Assembly: GCA_030619215.1 (NCBI GenBank)
Contig: JAUXBV010000048.1
Span: 1-11,272 of the forward strand
Origin: Fibrobacterota bacterium
Lineage (GTDB): Bacteria > Fibrobacterota > Chitinivibrionia > Chitinivibrionales > JANQEN01
DNA: 11,272 nucleotides
Direction of reading: 5' to 3'
Shown here: positions 705 through 11,272 of the stretch, piece after piece
Position numbering within the stretch: position 1 is the stretch's first letter
Layout of the letters: each line of letters begins with the position of its first letter
The notes under the pieces: model-generated
Told to the model about the DNA's origin: nothing
Database searches by the model: none
What the model saw: only the letters and a program-made list of their open reading frames with translations
Program-made: the position numbers and the translations under genes

Positions 705-1382
705 ATGGATATTGATCTGAAAAAAGAGCAGGAAGCGACTTTATCAAGACCCAGGATGAAATATGGATTAATGGCAAGCTTAATGTTCCGGTCAATGGAT
801 TTTATCTATGGTAAGAAGACGACTTATCCTAAAGTAAAGTTTTTAGAGATACTTGCGCGAATTCCTTATCAGGCGTGGGAGGTAAAACAGTACCAGCATA
901 TCATTACATGCTTTGGGAATGAAAAGAAGCGCCATAAGGCGGAGGAGATTATAAAATGGAGCAGGGAATCCCAGGATAATGAGTACTGGCATTTGCTGGT
1001 TGCTTCAGAAAAGATGAAAGAGGATAAGGTAAAGGACAGTTGGTTCTGGTATCACCTTATCCCACCGTTAGTAGCTTTCAAGTATACGATATTCTCGCGT
1101 TTTTTCGCTTTTCTTAGTATTAAGTCTGCCTGGAAACTCAATGCGGAGTTTGAGGACCATGCTGAACATACATTCATGCAGTTCGTCAAAGATAACCCCC
1201 GGTTAGAGGATCAAAAGGTAGAAAGCAGTGTTGTACAGGATGGACGGGGGAGTGACAACGGTAAATATGCTTCATGGGCTGATGTGTTCAGGCGTATGGG
1301 CCTGGATGAGCGTGAGCATATGAACGGGTCGCTGAGGTTGATTGGTAAAGAAAATAAAGTAGTAAAATATTCTTCTATTTAA
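705..1382 (+). CDS. Alternative-oxidase-like diiron membrane-associated protein
   Basis: A 225-residue protein whose motifs match the alternative oxidase (AOX/PTOX) family in order: E59 in IPYQAWE, E93-x-x-H96 in NEYWH (family NERMH), E150 in EFEDHAEHTF (family LEEEAVHTY), and E202-x-x-H205 in LDEREH (family ADEAHH). All six diiron ligands are therefore present. Between them lies a hydrophobic stretch at about residues 118-142 that would sit in the membrane face. Known AOX proteins oxidise ubiquinol and reduce oxygen to water without pumping protons; whether this divergent bacterial form uses quinol is inference. The start has AAGGAA about nine bases upstream. It forms an operon with the rubrerythrin-like gene, suggesting oxygen or peroxide removal in an organism that does not tolerate them well. 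Overall similarity is low apart from the ligand motifs. Confidence 0.78.
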   Translation: MDIDLKKEQEATLSRPRMKYGLMASLMFRSMDFIYGKKTTYPKVKFLEILARIPYQAWEVKQYQHIITCFGNEKKRHKAEEIIKWSRESQDNEYWHLLVASEKMKEDKVKDSWFWYHLIPPLVAFKYTIFSRFFAFLSIKSAWKLNAEFEDHAEHTFMQFVKDNPRLEDQKVESSVVQDGRGSDNGKYASWADVFRRMGLDEREHMNGSLRLIGKENKVVKYSSI

Positions 1383-2395: not shown

Positions 2396-3244
2396 ATGAA
2401 AGCATTTATCAGCGATATACATGCTAACCTGGAAGCTTTATGCAGCGTATTTGACGATATTGAGAAGCATAATGTTGATGAAATTATTTGCCTCGGTGAT
2501 ATTGTCGGATACGGGGCCGATCCTGAGGAATGTGTCGATATGGTAATGAGTAAAGCAAGACTGACGTTAAAGGGAAATCACGATTATGCCCTGATCAATG
2601 GTCCTGCAGGGTTTAATTCACTTGCCGCGGATGTAATCCGTAAGACGTATGACCTGATGCTTCCTGAAGAATCTGAAAAAGAGGAAAACAAGGAGTGCTT
2701 TGAGCCCCAATATTACAAATGCAGGCATGATGAAAAGTATTCAAAATGTTTAATTATGCAGCACTCAGCGCTGTCACGCTGGGATTTCGAAGATAAAATT
2801 CCTGATACACATAAAGAGGGAGAATTGTTTTATGTACACGCTTCTCCCTTTGACCCGCTTAATGAATACGTATTCCCTGACAGGTCAATACACTGGTGGA
2901 ACCCCAAAAGGATCGAAAAGATTTTTAAAGAAGTTGAAACTTTCCTTTTCTGCGGGCATACCCATATTCCCTGCCTGATTACGTCAGAACTGAAGTGTGT
3001 TTACCCGGATCAGTGTGATAATAAGCTTACGCTTGATATGGATGGCAAATATATTGTCAATACCGGCTCTGTGGGACAGCCGCGGGATCGTGATAACCGC
3101 GCCTGCTATCTGCTGTTTGACGAAGAGAAGAGAATAATTGAATGGCGTAGAGTAAGTTATGACATTGAGGAAGCAATGAAGCGAATTGAAGGGATGTGCG
3201 GAAAAGACAGTTGGTGCTCCCTCAGGCTGATGATGGGAAGATAG
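2396..3244 (+). CDS. Calcineurin-like metallophosphoesterase (YfcE/MJ0936-type fold)
   Basis: A 282-residue dimetal phosphoesterase with the full metal-ligand set: D7 and H9 in SDIHAN, D35 in GDIVGYG, N61-H62 in GNHD, H148 in YVHASP, and H188 and H190 in CGHTHIP. The family signature NTGSVGQPRD is also present. This subgroup hydrolyses phosphodiesters or phosphomonoesters in the cytoplasm; the natural substrate cannot be read from sequence. About 30 residues at 92-120 (acidic, containing C101, C109 and C118) look like an insertion relative to the shortest members. AAGGAG precedes the start by a normal distance. Co-transcription with the receiver protein is likely and suggests a signalling output, but there is no direct evidence. 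Confidence 0.88.
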   Translation: MKAFISDIHANLEALCSVFDDIEKHNVDEIICLGDIVGYGADPEECVDMVMSKARLTLKGNHDYALINGPAGFNSLAADVIRKTYDLMLPEESEKEENKECFEPQYYKCRHDEKYSKCLIMQHSALSRWDFEDKIPDTHKEGELFYVHASPFDPLNEYVFPDRSIHWWNPKRIEKIFKEVETFLFCGHTHIPCLITSELKCVYPDQCDNKLTLDMDGKYIVNTGSVGQPRDRDNRACYLLFDEEKRIIEWRRVSYDIEEAMKRIEGMCGKDSWCSLRLMMGR

Positions 3245-3287
3245 TTAAATAGTCAATGGTCAATTGCTAATTGTCAATTGTTAATAA
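3245..3287. repeat. Short word-repeat stretch (TCAATTG-type)
   Basis: The word TCAATTG or close variants (TCAATGG, TCAATTG, CTAATTG, TCAATTG) recur within about 30 bases just after the phosphoesterase stop. A similar low-complexity pattern (AAACTGG repeated) opens the window at 10-30. Such strings are common intergenic filler and carry no clear function. Confidence 0.4.
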
Positions 3288-3410
3288 ATTGGAGAGGTTG
3301 ATACACTCGAGCTTGAAGAAAATATTGATCCGGTTACTGAAGCGACATTGACAAGCGAGTTGACTATTAATGCAGTGAAGGCGATAAAGTATTTGTTGAA
3401 TTTATTGTAA
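3288..3410 (+). pseudogene. Remnant-like frame resembling the end of an FMN-binding domain
   Basis: An open frame of 40 codons after tandem stops has no ATG, GTG or TTG in a plausible position, so it looks like the 3' end of a broken gene. Its translation includes IDPVTEATLTSELTINAVKA, which resembles the closing motif of FMN_bind domains (D-x-x-[ST]-G-A-T-x-T-S followed by a helix), with Glu in place of the usual Gly. In that family the Thr of the motif carries covalently bound FMN. The stop codon overlaps the end of the convergent IscU-like gene by nine bases. Either a degraded relative of RnfG/NqrC-like flavoproteins or a chance resemblance over a short stretch. Confidence 0.35.
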
Positions 3411-4178
3411 AATAATGAGCGCATCAATAAACAATTCGTACTCTTCATCTTCGTTAAGGTCGTGGACCAGAACTTTTTCAACCTCGCCTTCCCCTTTGAT
3501 CTCAAGTATTTCCGATTCATAGAGGATTTTCACGTCGGATTGTTTTAATTGTGTTTTTAATTCAGGATTTGCAGCGACCTCTTTCGAAGCTGTCACAAAA
3601 ATGACTCTCGGAGTAAGTTTCGTTAATTCTAATGCTGTTTCTATGGATTGTTCACCCTTATCGAGTACCATCACTCTTTTATCTTTGAAAAGTGACAGGT
3701 CTTCAACCTCGTTGAATACGCCCTTATTGAGAAACTCAACAAATCCGATGATCTCTTTTTTCCCTGCGTCGCTTTTTTCCTTTTCCCCTGCTAAAGGCTG
3801 CTGCTTCGCACGGTAATTTTTTATCGCATCCCTGAGAGCATCCGCCGCAAGGTTGGAGCAGTGCATCTTAACAGGGGGAAGTCCGTCCAGCTCGTCAGCA
3901 ACGTCGCCGCGCGTGATCTTTTCGGCCTCTTCAATGGTTTTACCCTTTGCCAGCTCTGTTATCATGCTTGCAGTGGCAATTGCAGATCCGCAGCCGAAAG
4001 TTTTAAACTTTACATCCTTTATAACATCGTTTTTCACGTCAAGGTAGACCTCCATCAGGTCACCGCACACAGGGTTTCCGACCCGCCCCATTGCGACATT
4101 TTTACCCTCAAGCGTACCGCTGTTTCTCGGATTGCGGAAGTGGTCTAAAACTTTCTCTGAGTATTGTGTTGATTTCAT
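3402..4178 (-). CDS. iscU: IscU/NifU-type Fe-S scaffold fused to a degenerate thioredoxin-reductase-like domain
   Basis: Residues 1-125 are a canonical IscU scaffold on which Fe-S clusters are built: C38 in NPVCGD with D40, C63 in FGCGSAIA, and H106-C107 in PPVKMHCSNLA. After a charged linker, residues about 141-258 resemble the NAD(P)H-binding module of thioredoxin reductase: VEFLNKGVF, then KDKRVMVLDKGEQSIETALE where the family has a GGG-x-S-A loop, and an ending DALIIL like the family DGVFI. The redox CxxC expected near residues 154-160 is replaced by NEVE, and the glycine loop is LDKGEQS. A catalytic reductase is therefore unlikely; a docking or regulatory domain is more plausible. IscU alone is about 125-130 residues, so this protein is twice the usual length. 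AGGTG precedes the ATG, and it lies 15 bases after the IscS-like gene, its expected partner. Confidence 0.85.
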   Translation of the reverse strand: MKSTQYSEKVLDHFRNPRNSGTLEGKNVAMGRVGNPVCGDLMEVYLDVKNDVIKDVKFKTFGCGSAIATASMITELAKGKTIEEAEKITRGDVADELDGLPPVKMHCSNLAADALRDAIKNYRAKQQPLAGEKEKSDAGKKEIIGFVEFLNKGVFNEVEDLSLFKDKRVMVLDKGEQSIETALELTKLTPRVIFVTASKEVAANPELKTQLKQSDVKILYESEILEIKGEGEVEKVLVHDLNEDEEYELFIDALIILQ

Positions 4179-4193
4179 AGTGTCACCTGCTTT

Positions 4194-5348
4194 CTATTCG
4201 TATAGTGGCGATAAATTTCTTAACCTGCCTACTACTTCAGGTAATGCATTTATTATGCTGTGAATCTCCTCTTCATCGGTGAACCTGCCGATTGTTACCT
4301 CCAGGGAGCCATGAGCCTCTTCATGCAAAAGGCCCAAAGCGATTAATGTATGTGACGGCTCAAGGGTCTTTGATGAACAGGCGGACCCGGTTGAAATAGA
4401 AACGCCTTTATCTTTCAGGGATAAAAGCAGCGACTCGCCTTCAATCCCTTCAAACCTGAAATGTACGTTGTTTGGTAATCTCTCCTTCGGGTGACCATTA
4501 AGGTATGCTTTCGGTATATCCTTTGAAATGTTTCCTGTTAAAATATCGCGGAATTCTTTAAACCTCTTTACTTCTTCTTCCATTCCGCCCTGCATTATCT
4601 CAACCGCCTTTTTCATCCCGACAATCCCAGGCATATTCTCACTCCCGGAACGCAAGCCTTTTTCCTGACCGCCACCGATGATAACGGGGCTTATCCTGAT
4701 TCCTTTTCTTAAATATAAAACCCCAACTCCCTTTGGCCCGTAAATATCATTGGATGAAAGTGTCATTAAGTCAATATTATCCCTTTTTACATCCAGCGGT
4801 ATTAATCCCTCTGCTGCAACTGCGTCGGTGTGGAATGCAATACCTTTTTCCCTGCATAGTTTACCTATTTCCGCTACCGGCTGTATCGTACCTATCTCAT
4901 TATTTGCATACCCGATTGATATCAGGATCGTTTTTTCTGTTATGCGTCCGGCAATTTTCTTGATGTTTACTCTTCCGTACTGGTCAACCGGTACTTTGGA
5001 AACAAAGAATCCGTTTTTCTCAAGGTGTTTTGCAATGTTGTGAATTGATATATGCTCGATTTCTGAGATTATGATATGGTTACCTTTGTTCCTGTTACGC
5101 ATCGCAAAGCCAATGATACCGAGATTATTTGATTCAGTTGCTCCGGAGGTAAAGATTATCTCATCTTTTTCAGCATTGATAAAGCCGGCAATTGTTTCAT
5201 GAGCTTCTTCCAGAACAGCAGTAGCATCATCACCAACAGCATGCAGGGATGATGGATTCCCGGGTTTATCATGGAAGTAGGGGAGCATTGCTTCTATTAC
5301 CCTGGGGTCAACTGGTTTTGATGACTGATAATCCAAATATGCATTCAT
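4194..5348 (-). CDS. iscS: IscS/NifS-family protein lacking the PLP-binding lysine
   Basis: A full-length (384 aa) cysteine-desulfurase-family protein. Retained motifs include NPSSLH (31-36), FTSGATESNN (66-75), H99, NNEIGTIQP (149-157), D175, GGGQEKGLRSGSEN (225-238) and the mobile-loop cysteine C324 in STGSACSSKTLEPS. However, the motif S-[AG]-H-K-x-Y-G-P-K-G reads SSNDIYGPKG: the His and the Schiff-base Lys are N200 and D201 (codons AAT and GAT at 4746-4751). The PLP-contacting Gln (family TDAVQ) is A178, and the N-terminal ATT is SSK. Normal PLP-dependent release of sulfur from cysteine is not expected. Archaeoglobus fulgidus IscS is known, as I recall, with Asp at the same place. The surviving cysteine and IscU-pairing suggest a persulfide relay or assembly platform. 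AGGAGA precedes the start at a slightly long distance. Confidence 0.9.
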   Translation of the reverse strand: MNAYLDYQSSKPVDPRVIEAMLPYFHDKPGNPSSLHAVGDDATAVLEEAHETIAGFINAEKDEIIFTSGATESNNLGIIGFAMRNRNKGNHIIISEIEHISIHNIAKHLEKNGFFVSKVPVDQYGRVNIKKIAGRITEKTILISIGYANNEIGTIQPVAEIGKLCREKGIAFHTDAVAAEGLIPLDVKRDNIDLMTLSSNDIYGPKGVGVLYLRKGIRISPVIIGGGQEKGLRSGSENMPGIVGMKKAVEIMQGGMEEEVKRFKEFRDILTGNISKDIPKAYLNGHPKERLPNNVHFRFEGIEGESLLLSLKDKGVSISTGSACSSKTLEPSHTLIALGLLHEEAHGSLEVTIGRFTDEEEIHSIINALPEVVGRLRNLSPLYE

Positions 5349-5367
5349 AATAACCGTCTCTCCTGTT

Positions 5368-5381
5368 TATGCTAAAGCATA
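5368..5381 (-). promoter_or_regulatory. Small dyad in the iscS leader
   Basis: TATGCT and AGCATA pair around two bases, ending a few bases upstream of the AGGAGA ribosome binding site of the IscS-like gene. It could influence translation or be a protein site; support is only its position and symmetry. Confidence 0.3.
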
Positions 5382-5393
5382 ATATTGTGTAAC

Positions 5394-5427
5394 AGCAGAA
5401 AGGCTATTAGCATATCCTTCTGCTTAA
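5394..5427 (-). repeat. Intra-operon hairpin, copy 1 of a two-locus repeat
   Basis: Read on the minus strand, TTAAGCAGAAGG, a 12-base loop and CCTTTCTGCT form a stem with one bulged base, placed between the DsrE-like and IscS-like genes. The same two arms with the same loop length, but a different loop sequence, occur at 8788-8821 on the plus strand. Placed inside the operon it may separate the carrier genes from the Fe-S genes by processing or partial termination. Confidence 0.6.
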
Positions 5428-5434
5428 CACACTA

Positions 5435-5809
5435 TTAAAACCACATTGTAGCGCCGGCTTCCAGCGCAAGGTCATTTAACGTTCCTGCGCCGACAATTTT
5501 TAATCCGGGGATTAACTCCACATTTTCCCAACCAAACATTTGTTTAGATGCTTCGCATACATAAATCGGGATATCCATGTCCAATGTTTTTTTGATCATC
5601 TCATATACACTTGGTAAGCTTCCAAGCTTTATCTTCTCCGCTTCCCCGGGGAGCAAAACTTTTAACCCCTGCCCTAAATAATAGACCCTGGGCTTAATGT
5701 CCATTGACTTTGCTGTTTGAGCAAGCACAAGGGGTGAGTACTGCCTTTCCGGTACATCACTTGTTTGAACATACAATATTGAATTGTTATCTTTCATAGA
5801 GTCACACAT
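5435..5809 (-). CDS. DsrE-family sulfur-carrier protein
   Basis: A 124-residue DsrE/DsrF/YchN-type protein. The family core is visible: ILYVQTSD as the first strand, the hydrophobic loop YYLGQGLKVL, the active cysteine C85 in IPIYVCEAS, and the ending IVGAGTLNDLALEAGATMWF. Members carry persulfide on the conserved cysteine and pass it to or from TusA, or act in sulfur oxidation and reduction complexes. It follows the TusA-like gene by eight bases, the pairing known from sulfur oxidisers and tRNA thiolation systems, so transfer between the two is likely here. AGGAGG lies four bases before the ATG, close but much better than the 16 bases to the next Met (M5), so the first ATG is chosen. Confidence 0.88.
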   Translation of the reverse strand: MCDSMKDNNSILYVQTSDVPERQYSPLVLAQTAKSMDIKPRVYYLGQGLKVLLPGEAEKIKLGSLPSVYEMIKKTLDMDIPIYVCEASKQMFGWENVELIPGLKIVGAGTLNDLALEAGATMWF

Positions 5810-5817
5810 ATTTCCTC

Positions 5818-6060
5818 CTATTTAAGTTTTTTTATTAAAAATCTTAATACATCTTCACTCTTTTCGAATTTAACCATTTCGTGCCCTGTTCTTTTTACAA
5901 ATCTATGTAAGTCCTCATCAGCAGCAGGGTCATCAGAGAGAACTTCAAGTATTTGGCCGACTTCAATTGAATCGATGTTTTCCCGTGCCTGAAACAGTGG
6001 TTCCGGACAATAGAGTCCAATACAATCAAGTCTCTTATCTATCCTTACTGAATTATCCAT
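5818..6060 (-). CDS. tusA: TusA/SirA-family sulfur carrier protein
   Basis: An 80-residue TusA-like protein. The defining CPxP motif is present as C18-P-E-P21 in LDCIGLYCPEP, followed by the family region EVLSDDPAADEDLHRF and a closing RTGHEMVKFEKSE. TusA proteins bind sulfur as a persulfide on the CPxP cysteine and hand it between donors and acceptors in the cytoplasm. An additional cysteine, C13, is close by. This is the first gene of a four-gene minus-strand operon and is preceded by GGAGGG and an almost perfect sigma-54 promoter. Classical TusA takes sulfur from IscS; the IscS-like protein in this operon lacks the PLP lysine, so here the flow may start from TusA/DsrE rather than end there (inference). 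Confidence 0.9.
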   Translation of the reverse strand: MDNSVRIDKRLDCIGLYCPEPLFQARENIDSIEVGQILEVLSDDPAADEDLHRFVKRTGHEMVKFEKSEDVLRFLIKKLK

Positions 6061-6096
6061 TTTTACCCTCCATTTTCTAATTACACGATATTAAAA

Positions 6097-6112
6097 CGCA
6101 AAATAAGTGCCA
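6097..6112 (-). promoter_or_regulatory. Sigma-54 promoter of the TusA-DsrE-IscS-IscU operon
   Basis: Minus-strand TGGCAC-TTATT-TTGCG matches the sigma-54 consensus TGGCAC-N5-TTGCW at every fixed base except the last, weak position. Transcription would begin near 6086, leaving a leader of roughly 26 bases before the TusA start. Confidence 0.72.
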
Positions 6113-6286
6113 ATATTCAAATATGATGATTTATAAGATAAATAGTGATAATTCGGGATATTTGCAGTTATGAGAAATAATTCACAAAAATGGGAAATGA
6201 CTTGTAGATATTTTTGTTTTAAATATACAATACTGTTTATAAATAAAAATGTACACTTTTAACTATATTTTTTAAATATAATTTTA

Positions 6287-6302
6287 TGGCATAATATTTG
6301 AT
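6287..6302 (+). promoter_or_regulatory. Sigma-54-like promoter of the flavin oxidoreductase gene
   Basis: TGGCAT-AATAT-TTGAT has the GG and GA dinucleotides at the ten-base gap required for sigma-54, with two departures from consensus. It sits within 28 bases that match 1878-1905 at 24 positions, including the sequence downstream of the -12 element. Start codon about 88 bases downstream. Confidence 0.5.
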
Positions 6303-6389
6303 ATTTTATATTACCGCAAAGAAATACAAAATAGAGGTGTCACAATTACTCTATTTACTTTTCTGCTCAATAATAAAGTAGGTTATAGT

Positions 6390-7619
6390 ATGAAGAAATA
6401 TGTAATAACAGGCAATGGCCCGGCCGGCATTAATGCCGCAAAGAAAATACGTTCTATAGATAAAGAAGGCAGCATCTCTGTATTTGCAGAAGAGGCATAC
6501 CCTTTGTACTACAAACCACGGCTCCCTGAGGTTCTGTCAGGAGAGGTTACACTCGATGAAATTATAATTTACAAACCTGAATGGTATGAGTCTAATAACA
6601 TTCAAGTCAAATATAGAACAACTGTTAATGGAATAGACATCTTGAATAAAACAATAGCCACTTCAGATAAACAAAACGTTCCGTATGATAAATTATTGCT
6701 TGCAAGTGGAGGATATGCATTCCTTCCTCCTGTTGAAGGCATTGATAAAAAAGGAGTATTTACCTTTCGATCTCCCGCAGATGTTGAAAATTTAATACAG
6801 AACGTTAAAAATAATAATGCGGCAACTATAGTTGGAGGCGGGCTTCTTGCACTTGAAGTTGGCTATAACCTTACAAAACTTGGTATTAAGGTAAATATTA
6901 TCGAGATTATTGACCGTTTATTACCCAGGCAACTTGATCAGGAGGGGGCGGTAATTCTACAAAAGACGCTTGAGGATAAAGGCTTTGTTTTTTATCTTAA
7001 AGACCAATTGGAAAAAGTATGCGGTAATAATGGTGTTGAGAAGGTGATTTTGAAAAGCGGTAAAGAAATTAATACCGGGGCTCTTATTGTTTGTATAGGG
7101 ATCCGGTCAAAAATCGATCTTGCAAAAAAAGCAGGCATTGAGATTGAAAAAGCGGTTGTAGTTGATAAATATATGAGAACCAGCACAGATGATATATGGG
7201 CAGCAGGAGATGTAGCTGAATATAATCGAATGGTATGGGGATTATGGGCAGTTGCGATGCGGCAGGGTAATGTGGCAGGCGCTAATATGGCAGGGGAGAA
7301 CCTGATATACTACCCACAATCCAATACAATAACCTTAAAAGTCACAGGTATTGATTTGATTTCTTCCGGTATTATTGATGATGATAAATATGAAAAGATT
7401 GTATTCAAAAAAGATAAAATATACCGCAAAATTCTAATAGATAAAGGAAAAATTGTGGGATGCATTCTTTTAGGAGATATTACAAATGATAAAAAGATTC
7501 TTAAATGTATGAGTGATGGAGATAATATCGAAAATTATAAAAATGAAATTATTAATCCTAAAAATCGTTTGGACTGCGCCACACACAGCATTTTTCATAA
7601 GAACTGCATATTATTGTGA
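6390..7619 (+). CDS. FAD-dependent NAD(P)H oxidoreductase (NirB/rubredoxin-reductase type)
   Basis: A 409-residue two-dinucleotide-domain flavoprotein. FAD binding is shown by G8-x-G10-x-x-G13 and by IWAAGDVAE (269-277); NAD(P)H binding by IVGGGLLALE (147-156), with E172 at the end of the second strand favouring NADH. The region YPLYYKPRLP (37-46) resembles the flavoprotein half of nitrite reductase NirB and rubredoxin reductase; there is no redox cysteine as in CoA-disulfide reductase. Residues about 310-385 form the usual C-terminal interface domain. The last 25 residues, with C396 and C406, are an unfamiliar tail. Electrons probably go to rubredoxin or another small carrier. Divergent from the sulfur operon and sharing a sigma-54 control region, it could reduce sulfur species or serve the diiron proteins upstream; both are inference. 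The ribosome site (AGTAGG) is modest. Confidence 0.85.
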   Translation: MKKYVITGNGPAGINAAKKIRSIDKEGSISVFAEEAYPLYYKPRLPEVLSGEVTLDEIIIYKPEWYESNNIQVKYRTTVNGIDILNKTIATSDKQNVPYDKLLLASGGYAFLPPVEGIDKKGVFTFRSPADVENLIQNVKNNNAATIVGGGLLALEVGYNLTKLGIKVNIIEIIDRLLPRQLDQEGAVILQKTLEDKGFVFYLKDQLEKVCGNNGVEKVILKSGKEINTGALIVCIGIRSKIDLAKKAGIEIEKAVVVDKYMRTSTDDIWAAGDVAEYNRMVWGLWAVAMRQGNVAGANMAGENLIYYPQSNTITLKVTGIDLISSGIIDDDKYEKIVFKKDKIYRKILIDKGKIVGCILLGDITNDKKILKCMSDGDNIENYKNEIINPKNRLDCATHSIFHKNCILL

Positions 7620-9316: not shown

Positions 9317-10438
9317 ATGGCTATAAGTCAAGAAATCAATGTTGAAAATCTTTACCGTGTTTTTGGCCGTTACAACAATGTTGCGACATTTGTATTTAAA
9401 GTTGGAAGTACAGCATTTGAAGCCTATGGTCCTTACGTTACAGGTAGTATTCGATATAGACCAAGCGACAGATCAAAGCTACAAAAAGCACTTGAGGAAG
9501 GAATTCAATCTGGACTTCCACAAGGAATCAAACTTGGATATGTTTTTCCTGGTGATGACAGAAAAATATCTCTTCTTTTAAGAAAAGAAGGATTCAAATG
9601 TGATGACGTTGAGGAATGCCAATTCGTCTCTTGGAAAAGTGAGGATAAATTTGCAAAGAAAGAAGCACGAGAGTTGCCAAATGTAATTAAAATAAAGGTG
9701 GATACAAGCCAATTCTTGCCGGGAGCTGAGGATAACATTACGCTTCATAGGTATGAAAGTACATTGCATGCTGGTTGGGAGTTTATTGATGAGGAGAAGT
9801 TCGAATTTATTGGTATATATGCAGCACTATCCAGAGGTAGTTTTCCTAAAGAATACCTTGAAAAGCTAAATGTGAAGGAAGAAGATATTCGATTGGAAGA
9901 CCGTGAATGGATGTACTTTTACGAAGCGAAAGCAAAACGGGCCGAATTATCGGATGAAGAAAATTTTCACCTCCAGACAATAAAAACAAATAGGATGCAA
10001 GAAAGGCTCCTTATCCTTGCAAGTGAAATTGAAGAATCTTTTGGAGACATTCGAAAATCAAAAATAGAACCTGACAAACTGAAGATAATTCTCAATGCCA
10101 TATTTAATTTCAAAGATGAACGAGTCCTTTATATAGAGTGCCCAATATACTGGGATTTTGTTACATATGCACATGTATATTTACGGCACGTCAAAGAATC
10201 ACAATTGGGAGGAAATTTCGAGAAGAAGTCAGTCTTTTTATACAAGCAAGAAGATATAAAGGACCTCATGCGTAGAGTGTTAGAAACCATTTCTACTGAT
10301 ATTAAAGAGCATTATTCGATATTTCCAAGAAAACGCTTCACAAGACATGGAGATGGCGCAGTTGAATTCAATGGTGATTACTACACTATCGACATAAGTG
10401 ATAAGGGAAGAATTGAGAATTTTTTTTGTTCGGCATAG
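9317..10438 (+). CDS. Orphan protein of unknown function
   Basis: I do not recognise this 373-residue protein. It is soluble-looking: no signal peptide and no membrane segment, rich in charged residues, with Lys/Glu-rich helical stretches around 205-245. The N-terminal 100 residues alternate short strands (VATFVFKVGS, GSIRYRPS, IKLGYVFPGDDRKISLLL) and may form a compact domain; the C-terminal part has aromatic, basic segments (IKEHYSIFPRKRFTRHGDG). No catalytic motif is evident. Codon use is plausible throughout and the frame is intact, so it is likely a real gene. The ribosome binding site is weak. It sits alone between two long non-coding regions, flanked by a 12-base inverted repeat and preceded by a repeat array, a setting typical of accessory or acquired genes. 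Function could range from defence to regulation; nothing seen allows a choice. Confidence 0.7.
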   Translation: MAISQEINVENLYRVFGRYNNVATFVFKVGSTAFEAYGPYVTGSIRYRPSDRSKLQKALEEGIQSGLPQGIKLGYVFPGDDRKISLLLRKEGFKCDDVEECQFVSWKSEDKFAKKEARELPNVIKIKVDTSQFLPGAEDNITLHRYESTLHAGWEFIDEEKFEFIGIYAALSRGSFPKEYLEKLNVKEEDIRLEDREWMYFYEAKAKRAELSDEENFHLQTIKTNRMQERLLILASEIEESFGDIRKSKIEPDKLKIILNAIFNFKDERVLYIECPIYWDFVTYAHVYLRHVKESQLGGNFEKKSVFLYKQEDIKDLMRRVLETISTDIKEHYSIFPRKRFTRHGDGAVEFNGDYYTIDISDKGRIENFFCSA

Positions 10439-10539
10439 CTTTATTGCGGATATACCACAAATTTTTAGACTTAGGTAAACTTTAAACAGAGCCGTTATAA
10501 AGACAGAATCCTATGAAGCCTCCGCATGGGTATATGAAG

Positions 10540-10551
10540 TTAACGGGGGCT
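10540..10551. repeat. Right copy of the 12-base inverted repeat flanking the orphan gene
   Basis: TTAACGGGGGCT, the exact reverse complement of the copy at 9263-9274. Both copies are followed in the same direction by an AAAGACA word, so the similarity is not purely inverted. Confidence 0.45.
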
Positions 10552-10633
10552 TAAAGACAGAGAGAAAAGGACAAAGACCGCCGCCATAGAGGAGATTTTA
10601 ATAAGGTAGGTGGTTTACAAACAGCAAACAACA

Positions 10634-10670
10634 GCCGCAGTGATGTCATTAAAACGGCCACACTTGCGGC
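10634..10670. repeat. GC-rich hairpin
   Basis: GCCGCAGTG (10634-10642) pairs with CACTTGCGGC (10661-10670), allowing one bulged base, around an 18-base loop. No T-run follows. It could be a terminator-like relic or a structured element. Confidence 0.4.
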
Positions 10671-10692
10671 GCACGTTGAGCCTTTAGAAAAA

Positions 10693-10746
10693 GGTACCCC
10701 TCTAAAAAACAACCATTTTTGGACGAAATAATTCGGGAGGGGTTCC
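10693..10746. repeat. Inverted repeat GGTACCCCTC / GAGGGGTTCC
   Basis: The two arms match at 9 of 10 positions and are separated by a 34-base AT-rich interval. Purpose unknown. Confidence 0.4.
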
Positions 10747-10966
10747 CAGGTATATATTAATTATGAGATTCTCAGGCACTTTAAAATTTATTTTTTAACT
10801 AAAAAAGACTTTTTCTACACTCTCGTTGGTGGCAATATACTCGGCTACATATGATTTAAAAATACACGATTTAAGAAATAAAATTTACTTAAATGATAAT
10901 CTTTAATACAATAAAAATCCAAAAGAATTTAAAATTAAAAATCTGTGTTTGAGGAGAGAAAAATCT

Positions 10967-11272
10967 ATGAAGTTACCGAAATGGCCAATTGATCCCAAGC
11001 AACCTTTTAGATCGGTTGTTATTTCTTATATTGATTTGGGAGTCCTTAAAGTAGTAATACGAGATGTCTTCCAAGAATTTATGAAAAAAAATATCCCCAA
11101 AGATCGAACAAAGGATTTATTACAGGAAATTTCAAACCAGCAGTACGAACAAAATGAAATGGAAACCAATACTGAAAGTCTTTTTTTTAAAAAAGACCAG
11201 CTTTCATTTGAGCACTATTGTAGTATGAAATTCCCCTTTGCCCATGAATGTATTATGAAAATGATACAGCAC
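10967..11272 (+). CDS. Hypothetical protein, 5' part (cut by the window edge)
   Basis: An open frame of 102 codons begins at ATG 10967 and runs off the end of the window. A good ribosome site, AGGAG, lies about ten bases upstream. The start of the product is MKLPKWPIDPKQPFRSVVIS, continuing with a hydrophilic, Lys/Gln/Glu-rich stretch and two cysteines near the cut (HYCSMKFPFAHEC). No signal peptide, membrane segment or known motif is seen. I do not recognise the family, and without the rest of the gene no function can be proposed. Confidence 0.7.
   Translation, partial: MKLPKWPIDPKQPFRSVVISYIDLGVLKVVIRDVFQEFMKKNIPKDRTKDLLQEISNQQYEQNEMETNTESLFFKKDQLSFEHYCSMKFPFAHECIMKMIQH

What the first reader, a model, noticed from the sequence alone, without database searches (positions are those of the whole stretch)
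4194..5348. IscS-family protein without the PLP lysine
The codons for the invariant His-Lys of the PLP site read Asn-Asp (N200-D201, bases 4746-4751) inside an otherwise excellent motif (SS-ND-IYGPKG), and the PLP-contacting Gln is A178, yet the catalytic-loop cysteine C324 and the rest of the fold motifs are kept and the gene is intact. Selection seems to have kept the fold and the cysteine but dropped PLP chemistry. From memory, Archaeoglobus fulgidus IscS also has Asp at the lysine position and forms a cluster-bearing complex with IscU. A bacterial example sitting in an operon with TusA and DsrE suggests a distinct sulfide- or persulfide-fed subclass.
Basis: partly seen in the sequence, partly recalled or inferred. 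Interest (0 to 1): 0.85.

Follow-up and report, generated by a model that had tools for sequence, protein, structure and literature searches.

The report
Lysine-less IscS in a sulfur-relay operon
A protein shaped like the enzyme that pulls sulfur off cysteine has lost the lysine it needs, yet many bacteria and archaea keep it beside two sulfur-carrying proteins and a cluster scaffold, which suggests that iron-sulfur clusters can be built from sulfur that does not come from cysteine.

Summary
Observation confirmed: window 4194-5348 (minus strand) encodes an intact IscS-like protein with N200-D201 instead of His-Lys and A178 instead of Gln; C324 is kept. It is not an error: all 120 listed homologs (of 8000 scored) and all 80 named-genome loci kept lack the lysine. 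Archaeoglobus fulgidus IscS, published as lacking desulfurase activity, belongs to the group.

New here: this lysine loss travels with a gene module, tusA-dsrE-iscS(Lys-less)-iscU. TusA lies upstream in 68 of 73 Lys-less loci and 0 of 72 His-Lys loci, also at equal identity (44-60%: 17 of 22 against 0 of 32). TusA and DsrE keep their sulfur-carrying cysteines in every copy checked. In the window's sublineage IscU carries a degenerate thioredoxin-reductase NAD(P)H domain; one sister archaeal genome has the whole reductase.

Best reading: Fe-S assembly in which Cys324 receives sulfur from TusA/DsrE instead of cysteine. Sulfur flow is inferred. Host genomes generally also keep a Lys-type enzyme. 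'Dropped PLP chemistry' is too strong: most PLP contacts are invariant. Variant of a known kind, with a testable sulfur source.

The parts
4194..5348 (-). iscS(Lys-less), 384 aa, class-V aminotransferase fold
4746..4751 (-). codons AAT-GAT: Asn200-Asp201 where Lys-type IscS has His-Lys (PLP Schiff-base lysine)
4815..4817 (-). codon of Ala178, where Lys-type IscS has the PLP-contacting Gln
4377..4379 (-). codon of Cys324, catalytic-loop cysteine, kept in 331 of 331 rows with D or E at 201 (rows partly redundant)
3402..4178 (-). iscU fused to a TrxR-like C-terminal domain, 258 aa
   Evidence: Pfam NifU_N 1.2e-48; NCBIfam TIGR03419 188.7 bits, over its 187.9 cut-off, and TIGR01292 TRX_reduct to the C-domain, under its cut-off
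3858..4067 (-). IscU cluster-ligand region: Cys38, Cys63, Cys107 (and Asp40), invariant in the alignment of 33 fusions
3405..3761 (-). IscU C-domain (residues 140-258): NAD(P)H-domain fold of thioredoxin reductase, without conserved Cys
5435..5809 (-). dsrE-like, 124 aa; Cys85 (codon 5555-5557) in 64 of 64 copies, the window's included
   Evidence: Pfam DsrE
5818..6060 (-). tusA, 80 aa; CPxP Cys18 (codon 6007-6009), Asp44 and Asp50 in 76 of 76 copies, the window's included; the only TusA over Pfam's cut-off in its 68.6%-complete genome
   Evidence: Pfam TusA
6061..6389 (.). intergenic region between the four-gene unit and the divergent oxidoreductase gene; probable promoter region (inferred from gene layout; consensus scan not clearly above shuffles)

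Best explanation
The gene encodes a Lys-less IscS ('NDIY' type) that serves as a persulfide-receiving and cluster-assembly platform, not as a cysteine desulfurase. It works in a four-gene module, tusA-dsrE-iscS(Lys-less)-iscU, that builds Fe-S clusters from sulfur that has not passed through cysteine. Proposed steps: (1) DsrE Cys85 and TusA Cys18 carry sulfane sulfur taken from sulfide, polysulfide or another donor (cysteines shown conserved; the cargo is inferred). (2) TusA docks on IscS and hands the sulfur to Cys324 on the mobile loop, the reverse of E. coli flow (inferred). (3) Cys324 passes it to IscU and may ligate the nascent [2Fe-2S], as reported for A. fulgidus (published for the homolog, not shown here). 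(4) The TrxR-like domain on IscU is a remnant of an IscU-reductase fusion, now most likely a docking or assembly part (ancestry supported by one sister genome; role inferred). The Lys-less genomes usually also carry a Lys-type enzyme.
For: His-Lys and Gln of the PLP site replaced while Cys324 is kept in 331 of 331 rows (rows picked by D/E at 201). TusA directly upstream in 68 of 73 Lys-less loci with enough flank against 0 of 72 His-Lys loci; DsrE 55 of 73 against 0 of 72. The contrast holds where overall identity to the window is the same (44-60%: TusA 17 of 22 against 0 of 32; Fisher p 5.6e-10, not corrected for kinship). In 80 named loci: TusA 75, DsrE 64, IscU 77, fused IscU 71 (several misses are contig ends). 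TusA C18/D44/D50 76 of 76 and DsrE C85 64 of 64; the equivalent Cys19, Asp45 and Asp51 lie at the transfer site of E. coli TusA (PMC2854127 passages), and DsrE-Cys78 of A. vinosum is persulfurated by sulfide (PMC3397948 passages). E. coli IscS docks TusA with Cys19 about 4 A from Cys328 (PMC2854127 passages). A. fulgidus IscS: no desulfurase activity, Cys ligand to the IscU cluster (PMC7585200 passages). Sulfide can feed IscU in E. coli lacking IscS (PMC13015791 abstract, passages). A full IscU-TrxR fusion with a Lys-less IscS and tusA upstream in L266.
Against: No chemistry was measured. Host genomes keep Lys-type enzymes: an H-K copy was read in 11 of 12 genomes (in G026 it is a partial, 31% SufS-range match), and a second IscS match exists in 20 of 20 WOR-3-phylum genomes with a Lys-less copy at 67% or more, so cysteine sulfur could still feed TusA. 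5 of 73 Lys-less loci lack TusA and 18 of 73 lack DsrE. Other Lys-less forms (H-R 2 loci, Q-N 1 locus) have neither beside them, so loss of Lys alone does not bring the module. In E. coli TusA is an acceptor, not a donor, for IscS. A. vinosum DsrEFH does not take sulfur from thiosulfate or glutathione persulfide (PMC3397948 passages), so the first donor is unknown. In E. coli sulfide can reach IscU with no IscS at all (PMC13015791 abstract, passages), which favours the pure-scaffold rival. The invariant PLP contacts are unexplained by a pure relay.
Confidence: 0.52

Rival explanations
1. Pure scaffold: Lys-less IscS only gives a cysteine ligand and a dimer platform for IscU; sulfide reaches IscU directly, and TusA/DsrE take sulfur away for another product or bring it straight to IscU. 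Cys324 never carries a persulfide.
For: Published picture of A. fulgidus IscS-IscU (PMC7585200 passages); sulfide can serve IscU without IscS in E. coli (PMC13015791 abstract, passages); IscU keeps all ligands.
Against: Does not explain why TusA is tied to the N-D Lys-less type (68 of 73 against 0 of 72), nor the conserved TusA/DsrE cysteines.
Confidence: 0.22
2. The pocket still works with non-covalent PLP or PMP and Asp201 as acid/base (compare Lys-less PMP enzymes of sugar biosynthesis such as ColD, recalled), doing altered cysteine or cysteine-persulfide chemistry.
For: T71, H99, D175, S198, N200 and D201 each in 49 of 49 cluster representatives; K206A of E. coli IscS retains some PLP and forms intermediates at very low rate (PMC9978102 passages).
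Against: The Gln position is Ala, Pro or Ser in all 49, and the Asn at 150 is not invariant (38 of 48); E. coli K206A and Q183E lack activity (PMC9978102 passages); A. fulgidus IscS lacks activity (PMC7585200 passages).
Confidence: 0.12
3. TusA and DsrE are the output side: the Lys-type IscS of the cell charges them, and the Lys-less IscS acts as a storage or regulatory sink that competes for TusA and IscU.
For: Lys-type copies are present in the genomes; in E. coli sulfur flows from IscS to TusA, and TusA and IscU compete for IscS (PMC11302665 abstract).
Against: Operon-like packing with a dedicated IscU in the same order in two domains of life suggests a working assembly unit.
Confidence: 0.1
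4. Sequencing error, decaying gene or misbinned contig, of no functional meaning.
For: No other match above 44% among 167 genomes of its phylum; the contig's 705-1382 gene is found in only its own genome of 21 searched; window GC 0.384 is at the low end of the bin's contigs (0.377-0.459).
Against: Same residues in 120 of 120 listed homologs; intact ORF; tetranucleotide usage within the range of the bin's own contigs (r 0.72 against 0.70-0.82 for 8 contigs; 18 loci of other taxa at most 0.63); the adjacent gene 2396-3244 has full-length 51-54% relatives in 4 of 20 relatives, one in the same family. Even a misbin would not touch the family-level result.
Confidence: 0.02

Closest known systems
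Archaeoglobus fulgidus IscS2 (PDB 4eb5, 4eb7, 4hvk; D199K mutant 4r5f)
   Same: Asp at the Lys position in an identical SSNDIYGPKG motif, Ala at the Gln position, catalytic Cys, IscU partner; 54% identity over the aligned fold
   Different: Its IscU (4eb5_C, 153 aa) has no room for the TrxR-like domain; its gene neighbours were not read here
Methanosarcina acetivorans IscS1/IscU1 (MA0808/MA0807)
   Same: Published as lacking the catalytic Lys; IscU1 is 24.2 kDa against 13.9 for IscU2; clustered with four genes of unknown function (PMC7585200, section 5 and passages)
   Different: Sequence and neighbours were not available here; whether the four genes include tusA and dsrE is untested
E. coli IscS with IscU and TusA (ISC / Tus relay)
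   Same: Same fold and docking partners
   Different: Lys206, His205 and Gln183 present; desulfurase; TusA is an acceptor and its gene is elsewhere (recalled)
MIS minimal system (MisS/MisU, names recalled) and SMS (SmsCB)
   Same: Minimal Fe-S assembly; SMS can use mineral sulfide (PMC12192291 passages)
   Different: MIS is described there as having a cysteine desulfurase; SMS has no IscS-like part. Whether Lys-less proteins were filed under MIS could not be checked: the defining paper was not read
DsrEFH-DsrC and Tus relays
   Same: DsrE-type and TusA-type persulfide carriers (PMC3397948 passages)
   Different: Serve sulfur oxidation or tRNA thiolation, not an IscU scaffold

Membership tests
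IscS/NifS cysteine desulfurase | PLP Schiff-base lysine in the His-Lys pair | tested here: not met
   N-D in the window and N-[DEAS] in its relatives
IscS/NifS cysteine desulfurase | catalytic-loop cysteine | tested here: met
   C324; 331 of 331 rows
IscS/NifS cysteine desulfurase | fold type I, IscS fold | tested here: met
IscS/NifS cysteine desulfurase | curated NCBIfam cut-offs of the IscS and NifS equivalogs | tested here: not met
   TIGR02006 406 of 643 bits, TIGR03402 476 of 531; only the broad subfamily NF002806 passes, 308.9 against 304
IscS/NifS cysteine desulfurase | releases sulfur from L-cysteine | not testable with these tools
   needs purified protein
Lys-less IscS group (A. fulgidus type) | N-D motif, Gln to Ala, Cys kept | tested here: met
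Lys-less IscS group (A. fulgidus type) | one common origin | tested here: inconclusive
   first tree: 61 rows one clade, 96/97; wider tree: branch 73/99 with one QN row inside, bootstrap not settled; one clade not rejected, p-AU 0.224
Lys-less IscS group (A. fulgidus type) | Cys ligates the cluster on IscU | not testable with these tools
   needs structure
IscU/NifU scaffold (3402-4178) | three Cys and Asp ligands, LPPxK | tested here: met
   C38, D40, C63, C107 and L100-P101-P102-x-K104
Thioredoxin reductase (C-domain of IscU) | redox CxxC and FAD domain | tested here: not met
   no room for an FAD domain (residues 140-258 only), no conserved Cys after residue 107; fold alone matches
TusA | CPxP cysteine and two Asp | tested here: met
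   76 of 76
DsrE | conserved Cys | tested here: met
   64 of 64
Bacterial ISC operon | hscBA, fdx, iscA beside iscSU | tested here: not met
   no such family among the Pfam matches of the 11 window proteins scanned
MIS system | definition of MisS/MisU | not tested
   defining paper not read

The most novel reading that the evidence does not exclude
tusA-dsrE-iscS(Lys-less)-iscU is a separate Fe-S assembly system, shared by bacteria, Asgard archaea and other archaea, that draws on sulfide or zero-valent sulfur and runs beside the cysteine-fed system; IscS was turned from a sulfur-producing enzyme into a sulfur-receiving one, with sulfur flow through TusA reversed.
Probability: 0.35. Interest if true: 0.85.

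Novelty: new variant of a known kind. Interest (0 to 1): 0.64.

Why it matters
A. fulgidus IscS has been a puzzle: an IscS that cannot make sulfur yet sits on IscU. This work shows that it belongs to a large, well-conserved group in two domains of life, and names candidate sulfur donors (TusA, DsrE) that travel with most of that group. That makes the question of where such organisms get sulfur for Fe-S clusters testable with four small proteins. It also warns that databases name many such proteins 'cysteine desulfurase' (source names). If the reversed relay is right, cysteine-independent and cysteine-fed assembly run in parallel in the same cells.

Tried and rejected
Looked for a genome that has only the Lys-less IscS, which would prove a cysteine-free supply: not found. 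11 of 12 genomes have an H-K copy (in G026 it is a partial SufS-range match, and in the twelfth, G031, only an H-R copy was read and a 29% SufS-range hit was left unread). In the WOR-3 phylum 20 of 20 genomes (of 147 searched) with a Lys-less copy at 67% identity or more have a second match; the second copy was read in 6 of these and was H-K in all 6.

A clean identity gap between the two types seemed present after (Lys-less above 51%, H-K below). The Asgard sample broke it: both types occur at about 48-52% (40 places picked by identity from the list). I dropped that claim and used the overlap zone as a control.

Oxidative-stress neighbourhood (rubrerythrin, desulfoferrodoxin, flavodiiron protein and others; families confirmed): 22 of 80 loci, 16 of them WOR-3/Stahlbacteria and 3 Thermodesulfobacteriota; 0 of 20 Thorarchaeota and 0 of 14 Actinomycetota. 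It belongs to some hosts, not to the module; rejected as a functional clue for all.

Promoter and terminator scan 3200-6450: 11 and 4 found against 8.6 and 3.1 in shuffles; uninformative.

The literature searches did not list a paper on a tusA-dsrE-iscS-iscU module with a Lys-less IscS. The library lacks most subscription journals, so this is not proof of absence. Marinoni 2012, Yamanaka 2013 and Pagnier 2014 were seen only as references inside PMC7585200.

Rows dropped: one search left out 8 of 375 rows (gappy or other residues), and its 331 Lys-less rows hold some genes twice (named locus, genome locus and protein entry). One search used 93 chosen rows and one search used 103. Searches left out loci with under 300 aligned residues (L005, L134, L184 named). 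One search counts only loci with 1000 bases upstream (TusA, DsrE) or 700 downstream (IscU) and does not include L025-L104, which are counted. E-values and Fisher values ignore kinship. TusA and DsrE were sought with the window's own proteins, so very distant ones beside Lys-type genes could be missed. The second half of the script failed; it was mended and run.

Full report

It is a fixed family trait. Among the 120 homologs listed (best of 8000 scored), 112 have N-D and 8 have N-E. Among 80 loci from named genomes (best 80 kept of 100), found with patterns that do not cover the site, 79 have N-D and 1 has N-A. Among the 120 relatives listed for A. fulgidus IscS, 119 have N-D and 1 has N-K; the N-K entry is probably the crystallised mutant. 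The 120 listed relatives of the genome's own Lys-type IscS all have H-K, Q and C. Hosts include candidate WOR-3/Stahlbacteria, Aminicenantes, Deltaproteobacteria, Actinomycetota, Bacillota, Thorarchaeota, Lokiarchaeota and Euryarchaeota.

What was kept in the pocket. After clustering at 75% identity, 49 Lys-less representatives all keep T71, H99, D175, S198, N200, D201 and C324, while the Gln position is A (46), P (2) or S (1); Asn150 is less strict (38 of 48). H99 and D175 correspond to the E. coli ring-stacking and pyridine-nitrogen contacts (PMC9978102 passages), T71 and S198 to phosphate contacts (recalled). Selection therefore holds much of the cofactor cup as well as the cysteine; the Schiff-base lysine, the phenolate partner and the His next to the lysine changed. 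E. coli K206A still binds some PLP but has no desulfurase activity (PMC9978102 passages). Bound PLP or PMP remains possible.

One origin? In a first tree of 93 chosen rows, 60 D rows and one N-A row form one clade (96/97), all K rows outside. A wider tree of 103 rows puts 56 Lys-less rows and one Q-N row on one side of a branch with support 73/99, bootstrap not settled; holding the 56 together is not rejected (p-AU 0.224). One origin is likely but not shown. Other Lys-less copies exist: H-R in two Thorarchaeota genomes (L127, L128), Q-N in L130 and N-S in L241.

The module. On the minus strand, in order: tusA (6060-5818), dsrE (5809-5435), iscS (5348-4194), iscU (4178-3402), with gaps of 8, 86 and 15 bases. 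In 80 named loci the order TusA-DsrE-IscS-IscU occurs 60 times and TusA-IscS-IscU 14 times; TusA is present in 75, DsrE in 64, IscU in 77 and the fused IscU in 71 (several misses are contig ends). The key control is the Lys-type IscS genes of the same and other genomes: with at least 1000 bases upstream, TusA is found in 68 of 73 Lys-less (N-[DEAS]) loci and 0 of 72 H-K loci, and DsrE in 55 of 73 and 0 of 72. At 44-60% identity to the window, where both types occur, TusA is found in 17 of 22 against 0 of 32. H-K loci in that zone have a plain IscU next door in 21 of 33. The five Lys-less loci without TusA are L187, L228, L229, L230 and L232; the last four form one clade. The H-R (2) and Q-N (1) loci have IscU but neither TusA nor DsrE, so it is the N-D group, not loss of Lys as such, that goes with the carriers.

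The carriers look competent. TusA keeps Cys18 of CPxP, Asp44 and Asp50 in 76 of 76 copies; DsrE keeps Cys85 in 64 of 64 (window included). The window's TusA is the only one over Pfam's cut-off in its genome, which is 68.6% complete. In E. coli TusA the equivalent Cys19 lies about 4 A from IscS Cys328 in the complex, with Asp45 and Asp51 close by (PMC2854127 passages). A. vinosum DsrE is persulfurated on its conserved Cys by sulfide alone (PMC3397948 passages).

Host and transfer. Named relatives of the genome's own Lys-type IscS are Chitinispirillaceae, Chitinivibrionales and Fibrobacter, so the host is probably a Fibrobacterota relative. Within its phylum sample (167 genomes, E up to 1e-60) no other match exceeds 44%, and the copies whose residues were read outside G000 are H-K. 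Tetranucleotide usage fits the bin, though GC is at its low end; the neighbour gene 2396-3244 has full-length relatives in 4 of 20 relatives, one in the same family, while gene 705-1382 has none. Horizontal gain is more likely than misbinning, but misbinning is not excluded.

Mechanism. Shown: loss of residues needed for desulfuration, kept Cys, dedicated partners, conserved carrier cysteines. Taken from papers on relatives: no desulfurase activity and a Cys ligand to the IscU cluster in A. fulgidus (PMC7585200 passages); sulfide feeding of IscU without IscS in E. coli (PMC13015791 abstract and passages). Inferred: sulfur flow TusA/DsrE to Cys324 to IscU, and the role of the C-domain. Against a cysteine-free cell: the same genomes carry Lys-type enzymes.

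Verdict. The finding grows from one odd protein to a cross-domain gene module whose sulfur source can now be tested. It remains a variant of a known kind (Lys-less IscS with IscU), not a new category, until the sulfur flow is measured.

Noticed in passing
window 705-1382 (+): 225-aa protein with no Pfam, NCBIfam or PDB match, found in 1 of 21 genomes searched (only its own). By eye it has E...ExxH-like repeats reminiscent of di-iron oxidases; unproven.
   Followed up: partly
window 9317-10438 (+): 373-aa protein without any Pfam or NCBIfam family.
   Followed up: no
window 6390-7619 (+): NAD(P)H/FAD oxidoreductase (rubredoxin-reductase/NirB-N type) divergent from the module; a possible electron donor, untested.
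   Followed up: no
L266:2763-4109 (minus): IscU fused to a complete TrxR-like flavoprotein in a genome of the Asgard sample, beside a Lys-less IscS and with TusA upstream; likely ancestral form of the degenerate C-domain.
   Followed up: yes
L229:1-1586, L230:2819-4401, L228:526-1026: IscU genes of the Asgard sample next to a Lys-less IscS carry an intein-like insert just at the cluster-ligand cysteine C38 (GNPVC...HNC-GDLM in L229 and L230, start only in L228). Intein by eye, no family scan.
   Followed up: partly
L127, L128 (Thorarchaeota), L130, L241, L067: Other residues at the Lys position: H-R, Q-N, N-S and N-A. H-R and Q-N sit beside IscU without TusA/DsrE.
   Followed up: partly
L032:3896-5050 and 9735-10973: A Lys-less and a Lys-type IscS gene within one 11-kb stretch of an Aminicenantes genome.
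   Followed up: no
L025-L104 flanks: In WOR-3/Stahlbacteria and Thermodesulfobacteriota the module lies near rubrerythrin, desulfoferrodoxin, flavodiiron and glutaredoxin genes (22 of 80 loci in all); absent around the Thorarchaeota and Actinomycetota copies. The window also has a rubrerythrin at 192-683.
   Followed up: partly
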